Source: Sphingomonas sp. PAMC26645 | GTDB taxonomy: Bacteria; Pseudomonadota; Alphaproteobacteria; Sphingomonadales; Sphingomonadaceae | DNA: 64,000 bases | Assembly: GCF_004795835.1 (NCBI RefSeq) | Contig: NZ_CP039249.1 | Coordinates: 3,757,001 to 3,821,000, forward strand | Direction of reading: 5' to 3' | Part shown: piece by piece, positions 49,489 to 62,424 of the stretch | Position numbering within the stretch: the first letter of the stretch is position 1 | Layout of the letters: every line of letters starts with the position of its first letter | Made by a program: the position numbers and the translations under genes | Notes under the pieces: generated by a model | What the model saw: only the letters and a program-made list of their open reading frames with translations | Database searches by the model: none | What the model was told of the DNA's origin: nothing

Positions 49489-51957
49489 TCACCCCTCGAT
49501 CTTCGAGAAATCTGCGACGTTGTGCACTGCGGCGCGGACTCGCTCAAGTAGCGCGAGACGAGCGGATCGCTTGGCGGGATCGGAATCGTTGACGATAACG
49601 CTATCAAAGAACGCGTCGATCGGCGCGCGGAGCGAGGCGAGTGCAGCCATGGCGGCGGCGAAATCCTCGCGTGCGATCGCGGCGGTGGCGCGGGGTTCGG
49701 CGGAGTCGAGCGCGGTCATCAGCGCAGTCTCTGCGGGTTCGGGGGTGTAGGACAGCGTTTCCTCTTCGCCCCTCCCTGTAAGGGACGGGTTGAGGGTGGG
49801 TCGGTCCGAGGCGGGCGCGGCGGTCCCACGAGGGCTACCCACCCCCGGCCCCTCCCTTTCAGGGATGGGAGCAGAAGAGGCGGCGTCGTCCTTCGGCGCT
49901 TCCTTCTTCAGGATATTGGCGGCGCGCTTGTAGCCGGCGAGCAGGTTCGCGCCGTCCTCGGTGGTCACGAACGCCTGGAGCGCGTGGACGCGCGCGAGCA
50001 GGCGGACGAGATCGTCCTCCTTAGCGCCAGTGCCGTCTATGATGCGGGCTGCACGAATTATGTCAGAACGAGTTCCTACATCACGTTCAGCTACTTCCAA
50101 ACGATCCATCATGAAATCTCGAACGCCAGCCGCCACCGGAATTGCCCGTTCCATGTCGGCCCATACCGCTTCGCCAACCCGTTTCTTAAATTCGTCAGGA
50201 CGGATCGTGTCAGCCCAAGCTTTCAAGGCGCCAATCGCGACCTCGACGCCAAACTCGTCAAAAACCGTGTTCAATAATGCCGCGCGTTTTCCCTGCTGTT
50301 CTAGCACGGCAGCCCCAATTCCGGACTTACCAAGTGCTTCAAAAATAGCAAAGAATAGGCTCATGCGGAGGCCATTCCGCTTCACGATAGCAATTACGCC
50401 GAGGGCAGCGCGACGAAGTGCGAAGGGATCCTTCGATCCCGTCGGCGCCAGATCGATCGAGAAAAATTGTGCTATCGTATCCAGCTTGTCCGCCAAGCTT
50501 ACCGCGACCGTTACCGGGTCGGTGGGGACATCGTCGCCTTGGCCGACCGGCTTGTAGTGGTCGCGGATGGCGGTGGCGACGGACGGGTGCTCGCCTTGGG
50601 CGGCGGCGTAGTAGCCGCCCATCAGGCCTTGCAGCTCGGGGAACTCGCCGACCATGCCGGTGACGAGGTCTGCCTTTGCGAGGCAGGCTGCGCGGTCTGC
50701 TAGGGTAGCCAACTCACTGCTCCCTTCCCGCTTGCGGGAGGGGTCGGGGGAGGGGCTAGCCTCGAACGCGGCGGTGGTGGTTGCGTCAGGCCCTCCCCCG
50801 ACCCCTCCCGCGAGCGGGAGGGGAGCAGAAGCAGAAGTTACTATGCCCTCTTCTACCAGCCAGCGGGCGAGCTTTGCGACGCGGTCGACCTTATCGGCTA
50901 CCGTGCCGAGCTTTTCGTGGAAGACGATCTTCGACAGCTTCTCGGCCTGCTCTTCGAGCGGGACCTTCAAGTCGGTGTCGTAGAAGAACTTCGCGTCCGA
51001 CAAGCGCGCGGCGAGCACTTTCCGATTGCCCTCGACGATCTTCGCACCGCCGTCGTGCGCGGCGATGTTAGCGGTACAGACGAACGCGTTCGCCAGTTTT
51101 CCGTCCGCGTCGCGGCAGACGAAATATTTCTGGTTCACGCGCGCCGTGAGCTGGATCACCTCGGGCGGGACGTCGAGAAACGCGGGGTCGAACTGGCCGA
51201 GCAGGGGAATCGGCCATTCGGTGAGGCCGGCATTCTCCGCGACGAGTCCCTCGTCCTCGATCAGTTCAAGGCCAGCCTGCGCGGCGGCTTCGCGGGCGTG
51301 GTCGCGGATCAGCGTGGCGCGTTCGTCGTGGTCGACGATGACGTGGCAGGCGCGCAGTTTCTCGACATAGTCGTGCGCGCCGCCGATCGTGATCTGGTAC
51401 GGATGGTGGAAGCGGTGGCCGAGCGTGGCGGCGCCGCTGGCGATGCCGGCGATCTCGAACGGCACGATCTCTTCGCCGAGCAACGCGACGATGCCTTGCA
51501 GCGGGCGGACCCACCGGAGCGATTCAGTGCTGGCCGACGCATCCCCCCAGCGCATCGACTTCGGCCACGGGAACGCGCGGACGATCGCGGGGATCGCCTC
51601 GGCGAGCACGGCGGCGGTTGCGCGGCCGGGCTTCTCGGTGACCGCGAAGAGCGTGCCGTTGCGGTCGATGAGTTGCTCACGCGTGAGGCCGGTCTTGCGG
51701 AGGAATCCTTCGAGCGCCTGGGGTGGCGCGGAGGTCTTGGGGCCCTTGGTTTCCTCGGAGACGGCGGCGGTCTCGAGCGGCAGGTCGCGCGCGATCAGCG
51801 TCAGGCGACGCGGGGTCGCGTAGGTGACGATGGCGCTGGTGGCGATGCCGGCCTTGGCGAGCTCGGCGGTGAACAGCCTGGCGAGATCGTCACGCGCCTT
51901 GGACTGCATCCGGGCGGGGATTTCTTCGGAGCGGAGTTCTAGGAGGAAGTCGGTCAT
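49489..51957 (-). CDS. glyS: Glycine--tRNA ligase beta subunit, with two repeat-derived insertions
   Basis: The 822-residue protein starts MTDFLLELRSEEIPARMQ, the usual GlyS N-terminus; the frame is open further upstream but only into a repeat. Family members are near 690 residues. Two extra segments are seen, at about residues 378-413 (after LVEEGIV) and 694-732 (after KKEAPKDD). Each is encoded by a palindromic repeat read through in frame. The core motifs are otherwise present (ARVNQKYF, LAKADLVTGMVGEFPELQG, DPFALRRAALG). The stretch from about 50035 to 50475 is markedly less GC-rich than the rest of the gene. The beta subunit works with GlyQ as an alpha2-beta2 enzyme charging tRNA-Gly. 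Confidence 0.95.
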   Translation of the reverse strand: MTDFLLELRSEEIPARMQSKARDDLARLFTAELAKAGIATSAIVTYATPRRLTLIARDLPLETAAVSEETKGPKTSAPPQALEGFLRKTGLTREQLIDRNGTLFAVTEKPGRATAAVLAEAIPAIVRAFPWPKSMRWGDASASTESLRWVRPLQGIVALLGEEIVPFEIAGIASGAATLGHRFHHPYQITIGGAHDYVEKLRACHVIVDHDERATLIRDHAREAAAQAGLELIEDEGLVAENAGLTEWPIPLLGQFDPAFLDVPPEVIQLTARVNQKYFVCRDADGKLANAFVCTANIAAHDGGAKIVEGNRKVLAARLSDAKFFYDTDLKVPLEEQAEKLSKIVFHEKLGTVADKVDRVAKLARWLVEEGIVTSASAPLPLAGGVGGGPDATTTAAFEASPSPDPSRKREGSSELATLADRAACLAKADLVTGMVGEFPELQGLMGGYYAAAQGEHPSVATAIRDHYKPVGQGDDVPTDPVTVAVSLADKLDTIAQFFSIDLAPTGSKDPFALRRAALGVIAIVKRNGLRMSLFFAIFEALGKSGIGAAVLEQQGKRAALLNTVFDEFGVEVAIGALKAWADTIRPDEFKKRVGEAVWADMERAIPVAAGVRDFMMDRLEVAERDVGTRSDIIRAARIIDGTGAKEDDLVRLLARVHALQAFVTTEDGANLLAGYKRAANILKKEAPKDDAASSAPIPEREGPGVGSPRGTAAPASDRPTLNPSLTGRGEEETLSYTPEPAETALMTALDSAEPRATAAIAREDFAAAMAALASLRAPIDAFFDSVIVNDSDPAKRSARLALLERVRAAVHNVADFSKIEG
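49763..49878. repeat. Palindromic repeat (CCCTCCCC type) inside glyS, copy 1
   Basis: Arms at 49763-49801 and 49837-49878 are inverted copies; each contains its own small hairpin (CCCTGTAAGGG and CCCTTTCAGGG). It is read in frame as part of glyS, replacing the variable linker before the C-terminal anticodon-binding region, and codes for a Pro/Gly/Arg-rich stretch. Confidence 0.85.
50719..50826. repeat. Palindromic repeat (CCCTCCCC type) inside glyS, copy 2
   Basis: Arms of about 35 bases (50720-50754 and 50791-50825) are nearly perfect inverted copies, each with an inner hairpin (CCCGCTTGCGGG and CCCGCGAGCGGG), separated by 36 bases. It is in frame in glyS and adds about 36 residues rich in Pro, Ala and Gly between two conserved helices. 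Confidence 0.88.
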
Positions 51958-51969
51958 GGGACTCTCAAA

Positions 51970-52094
51970 TCCTCCCCGGCACGGGGAGGGGGACCGTCCA
52001 AAGGACGGTGGAGGGGGCGGGCCGCGAACGGAGCGTGTGTGGCACGCCCCCTCCACCATGCTGCGCATGGTCCCCCTCCCCGTTCCGGGGAGGA
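51970..52094. repeat. Palindromic repeat (CCCTCCCC type) between glyQ and glyS
   Basis: Two 50-base arms (51970-52019 and 52045-52094) are inverted copies with few mismatches; each has inner hairpins (CCCCGGCACGGGG, CCGTCCAAAGGACGG). It fills the glyQ-glyS gap and ends 12 bases before the glyS start, so its folding may affect glyS translation. Confidence 0.88.
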
Positions 52095-54027: not shown

Positions 54028-54173
54028 CCCTCTCCCCTCGGGGAGAGGGAGGGAGGAGCACTTGCGACGGAAGGGTGAGGGGGAGTTGGGATAAACCGCC
54101 CGAGCCTCACCGCCCCTCACCCTCCCACGTGCAAGCGCACGCGGGCCCCTCCCTCTCCCCGGAGGGGCGAGGG
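54028..54173. repeat. Palindromic repeat (CCCTCCCC type) before rplY
   Basis: Inverted arms at about 54028-54081 and 54114-54166, each with an inner hairpin (CCCCTCGGGGAG and CTCCCCGGAGGGG). It fills much of the 264-base gap between the TraB-family gene and rplY; the rplY promoter must lie in or just after it. Nothing else was recognised in this gap. Confidence 0.8.
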
Positions 54174-56387: not shown

Positions 56388-56495
56388 TACCACCCCGGCG
56401 CAGGCCGGGGCCCAGTTGGGCAACGTTGCTAACGAAGGGCTGCCCTTTATCATACTGGCCTTCTCAACTGGGCCCCGGCCTTCGCCGGGGTGGTA
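56388..56495. repeat. Palindromic repeat (CCCCGGCG...CCCAGTTG type)
   Basis: Arms of 33 bases (56388-56420 and 56463-56495) are inverted copies with 2 mismatches; each arm has an inner CCCCGGC/GCCGGGG hairpin. Between them lies a 42-base AT-richer centre. A second small hairpin, CTCCCC-TGAA-GGGGAG (56531-56546), looks like half of a CCCTCCCC-type element. Both lie between convergent genes. Confidence 0.88.
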
Positions 56496-57726: not shown

Positions 57727-57781
57727 TGATTATTTTGCTGCACTGCGGCAATCGAGTGGGTCGATCAGGGCTGCTCTTGCT

Positions 57782-57904
57782 GATCCTCCCCCGCCAGGGG
57801 GTGGCGCGCAGCGACGGAGGGGGAGGAACACGCGACATCGGTTGCGCCGGCCTCCCCCCTCCGTCAGGCAAGTGCCTGCCACCTCCCCCTGGCGGGGGAG
57901 GATC
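57782..57904. repeat. Palindromic repeat (CCCTCCCC type) before ychF
   Basis: Inverted arms at about 57782-57827 and 57851-57904 with inner hairpins (CCCCCGCCAGGGGG, AGGCAAGTGCCT). It takes up most of the 330-base gap between the divergent dehydrogenase and ychF genes. The rest of that gap holds the TetR-like palindrome and the two promoters, which could not be placed exactly. Confidence 0.82.
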
Positions 57905-57986
57905 CGCGCAGCACCTTGGGCGAATGCTGGCCTTCCGCCCCGCCCTGCCCTAAAGCGCCACCACATTCTTATACCAAGGGCATATC

Positions 57987-62367: not shown

Positions 62368-62424
62368 TTGTTCTCCCGCGAAGGCGGGAGCCCAGTCTGG
62401 GCCCCCGCCTTCGCGGGGAAACAA
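62368..62424. repeat. Palindromic repeat (GCGAAGGCGGGAGCCCAG type)
   Basis: Two 28-base arms (62368-62395 and 62397-62424) are inverted copies with 3 mismatches, separated by one base, giving a long hairpin with inner CCCGCGAAGGCGGG stems. It lies in the 177-base gap between the barrel and phosphodiesterase genes and could act as a terminator. Confidence 0.88.

What the first reader, a model, noticed from the sequence alone, without database searches (positions are those of the whole stretch)
49763..50826. Two palindromic repeats inserted in frame inside the essential gene glyS
Copies at 49763-49878 and 50719-50826 are the same kind of inverted element that occupies intergenic gaps at 51970, 54028 and 57782, yet here both are translated, adding about 36-39 residues each to the tRNA synthetase beta subunit. 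This is like Rickettsia palindromic elements, which also insert in frame in essential genes. The protein is about 822 residues against about 690 for E. coli GlyS. It suggests a mobile or spreading element that tolerates or prefers in-frame coding sites.
Basis: partly seen in the sequence, partly recalled or inferred. Interest (0 to 1): 0.8.

Follow-up and report, generated by a model that had tools for sequence, protein, structure and literature searches.

The report
Palindromic repeats translated inside a tRNA synthetase
In Sphingomonas, two loops of an essential tRNA-charging enzyme are repeatedly filled by translated hairpin repeats of several different kinds, and between these loops lies a stretch that differs almost completely between otherwise very similar genes.

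Summary
Two palindromes, window 49760-49878 and 50717-50828, sit in frame in glyS (822 codons). They are repeat DNA: 19 and 21 palindromes match them in a 38% sample of this genome, themselves counted.

'Tolerates' is supported; 'prefers in-frame sites' is not. Of 237 sampled palindromes, 13 lie inside genes (82% of the DNA); I kept 9, in 8 genes.

New is the site. Among 93 sphingomonad GlyS loci, loop 1 is empty in 14 and filled in 79, by 11 motif classes that form about six separate DNA groups, with weak phylogenetic signal. The inserts are predicted disordered. valS and ileS have similar hot spots; leuS carries an insert.

Unexpectedly, between the loops GlyS has a hypervariable segment of about 80 residues. 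Relatives mostly 90-99% identical in DNA on both sides are unalignable inside it. One shared allele shows purifying selection (20 synonymous, 1 non-synonymous change). valS and ileS have such segments; alaS and leuS do not.

In-frame REP-type repeats are known; this is a strong new variant.

The parts
49489..51957 (-). glyS, glycyl-tRNA synthetase beta subunit, 822 codons plus stop
   Evidence: PF02092 E 2e-177 and DALR_1; solved GlyS matches. The mechanical ORF starts at 52068; the start used here gives MTDFLLELRSEEIPARM, shared by relatives.
50717..50828 (-). E2: in-frame palindrome at glyS site 1 (between LVEEGIV, residues 367-373, and LATLADRAA, 416-424); family F2 (CCCTCCCGCNNGCGGGAGGG arms)
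   Evidence: 110 sites of the arm motif in this genome at up to 2 mismatches, 0 in the reversed control.
49760..49878 (-). E1: in-frame palindrome at glyS site 3 (between RAANILKKE, residues 678-686, and LSYTPEPAE, 735-743); decayed copy of family F3 (CCCCTCCCTGGAAGGGAGGGG arms)
   Evidence: shared with the relatives L017-L020 and L066.
50110..50391 (-). HV: hypervariable segment of glyS (about residues 523-616) between the two palindromes, low GC3, predicted helical with pLDDT 52-78 over residues 541-600
51970..52094 (.). E3: intergenic palindrome between glyQ and glyS, family F11; the same family fills glyS site 1 in relatives
54028..54173 (.). E4: intergenic palindrome, F9-like long form
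56388..56495 (.). E6: intergenic palindrome, family F1, the commonest family in the sample
57779..57907 (.). E5: intergenic palindrome, family F4
62368..62424 (.). E7: short palindrome, family F8

Best explanation
The two inserts are REP-type palindromic repeats: two inverted hairpin arms around a spacer of variable sequence. They are copies of families that mostly occupy intergenic gaps. Copies that landed in two flexible linkers of GlyS without breaking the frame were tolerated and kept as disordered loops of about 36-42 residues. The same linkers have been filled, emptied and refilled by different families many times in the sphingomonads. Shown here: repeat identity, open frame, different occupants at the same place, avoidance of genes. 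Predicted: loop placement. Inferred: that the inserts are neutral or nearly so for the enzyme, and that turnover works by occasional insertion plus homologous exchange of glyS segments between species. Unknown: the enzyme that moves the repeats.
For: Genome copies of both families. In one search, 87 of 139 loci had all anchors (counted): site 1 was filled in 75 (71 with inverted-repeat z of 5 or more), empty in 11 (none with z of 3 or more), intermediate in 1. Eleven motif classes at site 1, about six groups separable at the DNA level. On an N-terminal GlyS tree the class label changes 45 times among 79 filled loci (shuffle mean 49.9, minimum 43); with six groups 37 times (shuffle mean 41.7, minimum 34, 23 of 500 as low). 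Inserts have pLDDT under 50 at 383-403, 693-697 and 699-728; 597 of 822 residues have 90 or more. Genes avoided: 9 kept of 237. Divergent gaps avoided: 11 of 214 placed intergenic palindromes against 171 of 771 gaps of 60 nt or more. An element at site 3 of L024 reads as a chimera, left arm like F9 and right arm like F3 (by eye), which speaks for exchange within the site. Lengths modulo 3 even.
Against: The GlyS loci were best matches to a query that itself carries the inserts, so the filled share is biased upward. Labels rest on motif patterns that I wrote; F2, F9, F13 and F3 are related to one another, as are F1, F16 and F17, so the number of independent replacements is smaller than the class count suggests. 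The tree has 29 weak forks of 89. In-frame hits include tRNA synthetases more often than expected from coding length (3 of 8 genes; 2 of 7 without the window), which plain tolerance does not predict. Inserts keep strong hairpins, as a function for the hairpin would also predict. No empty-versus-filled pair gave a clean junction or target duplication, so insertion itself was not seen.
Confidence: 0.75

Rival explanations
1. Hitchhiking: the glyS region between and around the two sites is exchanged between species because its hypervariable segment is under diversifying selection. The palindromes turn over at its edges as passengers of that exchange, or their arms help recombination.
For: The segment lies between the two sites. 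Against all ten relatives compared, three windows inside it are 37-57% identical, most windows outside 90-99%. Allele pairs shared between loci. A chimeric palindrome at site 3. valS and ileS have both features.
Against: L019 and L026 share the segment but differ at both palindrome sites. leuS has the palindrome without such a segment. For most of the 237 palindromes no such neighbour was looked for.
Confidence: 0.3
2. The hairpin is kept for a function in the mRNA, such as slowing the ribosome between two domains; any strong hairpin will do, so families can replace one another.
For: 71 of 75 filled site 1 loci keep a strong inverted repeat although the classes differ; fold of -93 kcal/mol.
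Against: 11 of 87 anchored relatives have no insert and no hairpin at site 1; at site 3 only 33 of 61 long inserts have z of 5 or more.
Confidence: 0.12
3. A mobile element that targets in-frame coding sites.
For: Two insertions in one gene; palindromes have more open frames than shuffled copies (3.44 against 2.81 of 6).
Against: 13 of 237 palindromes inside genes (9 kept) with 82% coding DNA; lengths modulo 3 even.
Confidence: 0.03
4. Assembly or sequencing error that creates a false fusion.
For: One relative (Leaf20, L098) has N runs in both inserts, which break its frame.
Against: The own genome is one contig; many independent genomes have open GlyS frames with an insert.
Confidence: 0.01

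Closest known systems
Rickettsia palindromic elements (RPE), Ogata et al. 2000 (not seen; through the review PMC2229807, passages read)
   Same: Palindromes of 105-146 bp, translated in frame in conserved protein genes and also present between genes; inserts thought neutral or slightly harmful.
   Different: Sequence relation not tested. Here some 13 arm-motif classes coexist in one genome sample, and one place in one gene is filled by several classes across species.
CGTC-tagged REPs of alphaproteobacteria, Di Nocera et al. 2013 (PMC3733652; abstract, sections 6 and 15 and passages read)
   Same: Head-to-head dimers, mostly intergenic, between co-directional and converging genes, no dedicated transposase. 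Intragenic copies reported, including in tRNA synthetases of X. oryzae, E. lithoralis and S. alaskensis and in DnaE2. A precedent for a shared site: different REPs at about the same place in recB of two Xanthomonas.
   Different: The two glyS inserts have no CGTC at the arm ends (one internal CGTC in E1, one internal GACG in E2), though 12 of 199 palindromes of this genome carry CGTCATCC. The paper says REPs in other genes of those functional classes are at different sites; here one site is shared by much of an order.
REPINs with RAYT transposase, Bertels and Rainey 2011 (PMC3116915, passages read)
   Same: Inverted REP doublet that forms a hairpin with a spacer.
   Different: No RAYT/Y1 transposase found in this genome; 16 of 151 genus genomes have a match.

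Membership tests
Rickettsia palindromic elements | Palindrome of about 105-146 bp in frame in conserved genes | tested here: met
   112 and 119 bp, in frame
Rickettsia palindromic elements | Sequence homology to RPE families | not tested
   No RPE sequences were fetched
CGTC-tagged REPs | Terminal CGTC tag with CCA tail on each arm | tested here: not met
   No CGTC at the ends of E1 or E2, read from the sequence; one internal CGTC in E1 and one internal GACG in E2. Another family of the genome, F7, carries the tag
CGTC-tagged REPs | Head-to-head dimers without a dedicated transposase | tested here: met
   Inverted arms; no Y1_Tnp; other transposases not searched
REPIN/RAYT | Inverted REP doublet forming a hairpin | tested here: met
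REPIN/RAYT | Cognate RAYT (Y1 transposase) in the genome | tested here: not met
   PF01797: 0 matches at E up to 0.001 in the own genome; the control rang in 5 of 14 named genomes
Caulobacter CIR | GANTC motif in the repeat | tested here: not met
   0 in E1 and in E2
MITE | Target-site duplication | tested here: inconclusive
   No clean empty/filled junction among the pairs listed

The most novel reading that the evidence does not exclude
Three essential tRNA synthetase genes (glyS, valS, ileS) of Sphingomonas carry hypervariable, horizontally exchanged allele segments kept diverse by balancing selection, perhaps by an antagonist such as a phage protein or toxin that binds the enzymes. The in-frame palindromes turn over at the edges of these exchange hot spots.
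Probability: 0.4. Interest if true: 0.88.

Novelty: new variant of a known kind. Interest (0 to 1): 0.62.

Why it matters
Translated palindromes are known, but a fixed place in an essential enzyme where several kinds of repeat come and go across a bacterial order makes their turnover, fitness cost and mechanism directly testable. The hypervariable segment next to them is more surprising: housekeeping synthetases are not expected to behave like antigen genes, and a force that diversifies three of them would be new biology. Four literature searches, of which I saw only the listings, showed no description of it.

Tried and rejected
Rejected: one repeat family for all elements. RAYT-driven spread in this genome (the F2 motif is abundant in many genus genomes without a Y1 match, for example 129 and 102 copies in G054 and G108). 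Hypervariable segment as random filler (over 53 segments cysteine is 0.2% against 3.6% expected, GC1 above GC2; purifying selection in a shared allele). The segment as another frame, strand or silent copy (blastn among 53 segments found only three same-strand allele pairs; one match in the own genome at E up to 1e-6). Phage or plasmid source (the matches that were listed with annotation were glyS; many records were unannotated there and most matched only the conserved flank; the two plasmid records opened look like chromosomal glyQ-glyS surroundings). Known RNA family (0 hits at gathering score). A Fitch count of empty against filled gave 12 changes, shuffle mean 13.2. In one search wrong frames were picked for several leuS and alaS relatives and its output was cut; the count was redone with all 30 loci of each gene in the right frame.

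Full report
What is there. glyS (49489-51957, minus strand) encodes an 822-residue glycyl-tRNA synthetase beta subunit. Two inverted repeats lie in it in frame: E2 at 50717-50828 (41-nt arms, 93% complementary) and E1 at 49760-49878 (weaker). They fold as RNA far better than shuffles. Block-shuffled control DNA gave no inverted repeat of score 17 or more in 797,500 bases.

Repeat families. I sampled 79 stretches plus the window, 1.63 million readable bases, about 38% of the genome. At score 17 or more there are 237 palindromes, at 20 or more 199. By arm motif the 199 fall into 13 classes, F1 being the commonest with 58, and 27 are left over. E2 belongs to F2 and E1 is a decayed F3; 21 and 19 palindromes of the sample, the inserts themselves counted, match them at score 45 or more. 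The elements at 51970, 54028, 56388 and 57779 are of other classes. Within the window E1 and E2 (score 31), E3 and E5 (34) and E3 and E4 (28) are distantly similar, the other pairs 10-23.

Location in the genome. Of the 237, 132 lie between co-directional genes, 71 between converging, 11 between diverging genes, 7 at stretch ends, 3 overlap gene edges and 13 lie inside predicted genes. Four of the 13 (L189, L203 at 10512, L207, L248; scores 17-19.5) have ordinary coding composition and fit no repeat class by eye; I dropped them as chance. The other nine are in eight genes: glyS twice, dnaE2, thiD, tsaC/sua5, recF, valS, hrpB, ileS. Predicted coding DNA is 82% of the sample, so genes are strongly avoided. 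All nine came from the first 40 stretches and the window; the other 39 stretches gave only L248, which I dropped. The in-frame genes lean to translation and DNA repair, as Di Nocera et al. also found (PMC3733652, section 15). With tRNA synthetases taken as about 1.2% of coding length (my estimate, recalled gene sizes), 2 of 7 genes outside the window has a chance of roughly 0.003. leuS also carries one in this genome, seen in a targeted look outside the sample.

The hot spots. From 139 GlyS loci (30 of the genus, 80 named records, 29 more of the order), 87 could be measured with all anchors: 75 filled at site 1, 71 of them with a strong inverted repeat, 11 empty, 1 between. With looser anchors for site 1 alone, 94 loci were read: 79 filled, one of them a short remnant, and 15 empty; one empty locus, Boseongicola, is not a sphingomonad and was left out of the tree, so 93 remain, 14 empty. 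Typical empty text is LVEEGIVKGADPDLAERAARLA; filled loci have the insert between LVEEGIV and LADLAERAARLA. The fillings fall into 11 motif classes. At the DNA level F2, F9, F13 and F3 are related to each other, as are F1, F16 and F17, while F11, F14, F12 and F15 stand apart, so about six separate groups. F11 is, in our window, the intergenic element E3. On a tree of the N-terminal part the class label changes 45 times among 79 filled loci, against 49.9 in shuffles (minimum 43); with the six groups 37 times against 41.7 (minimum 34; 23 of 500 shuffles as low). The phylogenetic signal is weak: turnover is fast at this depth. The loci were best matches to a query with inserts, so the filled share is too high; the tree has weak forks. 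In the nearest relatives the inserts are shared: F2 at site 1 in L016, L017 and L021, F3 at site 3 in L016-L020 and L066. In L024, site 3 has a left arm like F9 and a right arm like F3, which speaks for exchange inside the site.

Other synthetases. valS has a site between LGW and RYPND that is short (7-9 residues) in 16 of 28 measured loci and filled (40-48) in 12, in four motif classes (2 of 30 loci lacked the anchors). ileS has one after FIPMD with six motif classes among 30 loci, 13 of them unclassified. leuS has an F2-type insert in 3 of 30 loci: L345 (own), L347 and L348. alaS has none: the 40 full-length matches in 41 genomes span 2559-2580 nt, and no long variable block appears in 30 loci.

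Structure. The predicted model (53 sequences, mean pLDDT 86.8, pTM 0.82) has the two inserts as low-confidence coil (383-403, 693-697 and 699-728 under 50) between confident helices; the hypervariable part, residues 541-600, is helical at 52-78.

The hypervariable segment. Between the palindromes, residues about 523-616 differ almost wholly between loci. Own DNA against L017 is 89-99% identical in windows on both sides but 48-56% in three windows inside. Against all ten relatives compared, those three windows are 37-57%. Most windows outside are 90-99%, with drops at the palindrome sites, towards the glyS-ppdK gap, at the start of the stretch, and generally lower values for L025; only the glyQ-glyS gap with E3 is likewise random against all ten (37-54%). 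The segment was measured in 124 of 139 loci; 61 of those have 40 residues or more and a usable N-terminal part. Few pairs align: L024 and L066 (88 of 89 residues), L034 and L071 (N-terminal parts identical too, probably one species), L019 and L026 (70 of 74), L081 and L083 (50 of 72), and a few near 36-47%. For L024 and L066 the segment has 20 synonymous and 1 non-synonymous change, dS 0.40 and dN 0.005: this allele is under purifying selection. For L019 and L026 the contrast is weaker (6 and 4 changes). For L081 and L083 the segment is saturated at synonymous sites while the N-terminal part is not, which fits allele lineages older than the species. Third-position GC over 53 segments is 0.54 against 0.85 in the N-terminal part; one of the 30 genus loci, L028, has 0.84. 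Among 813 genes of 240 codons or more, 30 have an internal low-GC3 island, strongest in glyS and valS; the ileS segment was not flagged by this scan. valS has a segment of exactly 29 residues in 18 of 29 loci and 63-92 in the other 11; ileS has 51 in 8 of 30 and 59-84 in 22. Their DNA shows similar islands against near relatives. leuS and alaS show no such segment (leuS has a second short variable block, 10 residues at the median, 30-31 in three loci). Segments of differing length also occur in Brevundimonas, Phenylobacterium, Methylobacterium and Boseongicola GlyS. The own segment with its flanks has no near match elsewhere: in 295 genus genomes the best full-length match besides itself is 46%; higher values cover only the conserved first part.

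Reading. The palindromes are best read as REP-type repeats tolerated in linkers. Different occupants at one place are shown; the mechanism of turnover is inferred. Whether the hypervariable segment drives it is open: L019 and L026 share the segment but not the palindromes, and leuS has a palindrome without such a segment.

Known and new. In-frame palindromes are known from Rickettsia (review PMC2229807, passages) and from REPs in many bacteria, with tRNA synthetases of E. lithoralis and S. alaskensis named, and with one case of different REPs at about the same place, recB of two Xanthomonas (PMC3733652, section 15). Which synthetases these were is in a supplement I could not open. New, as far as my searches show, are the hot spot with several repeat kinds and the hypervariable segments. 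Four searches for the latter, listings only, gave no description. The searches on in-frame and palindromic repeats listed works on other bacteria as well; I opened only the three papers named here, so I cannot exclude a report on glyS in one that I did not open.

Noticed in passing
window 50110-50391; L016-L045: Hypervariable segment in glyS between the two palindromes: 37-57% DNA identity to all ten relatives compared, most windows outside 90-99%.
   Followed up: partly
L203:5953-8898 (valS); L259-L288: valS has a hypervariable segment between RQLWWGH[RQ]IPAWF and DVLDTWF, exactly 29 residues in 18 of 29 loci and 63-92 in 11.
   Followed up: partly
L214:14196-17135 (ileS); L289-L318: ileS has a hypervariable segment before HPMHALGGFF, in what I recall as the editing domain, 51 residues in 8 of 30 loci and 59-84 in 22.
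   Followed up: partly
L024 site 3: Palindrome that reads as a chimera, left arm of one class and right arm of another.
   Followed up: no
own genome sample: Genes with in-frame palindromes are skewed to tRNA synthetases, tRNA modification and DNA repair.
   Followed up: partly
window 51970-52094: The glyQ-glyS gap palindrome also differs wholly between near relatives; read as an upstream extension it lengthens the glyS ORF to 859 aa, a risk of a wrong start in annotation.
   Followed up: no
L345 and L348 (leuS): A second, acidic variable block of 30-31 residues in leuS, also in L341, against 10 at the median.
   Followed up: no
L105: Record titled Arthrobacter sp. TPD3018 encodes a sphingomonad-like GlyS (65% identity); probably mislabelled.
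   Followed up: no
L257, L258: Plasmid records of Sphingomonas parapaucimobilis YK209 and Yersinia frederiksenii AGR_49 carry glyQ-glyS with chromosome-like neighbours; perhaps mislabelled contigs.
   Followed up: no
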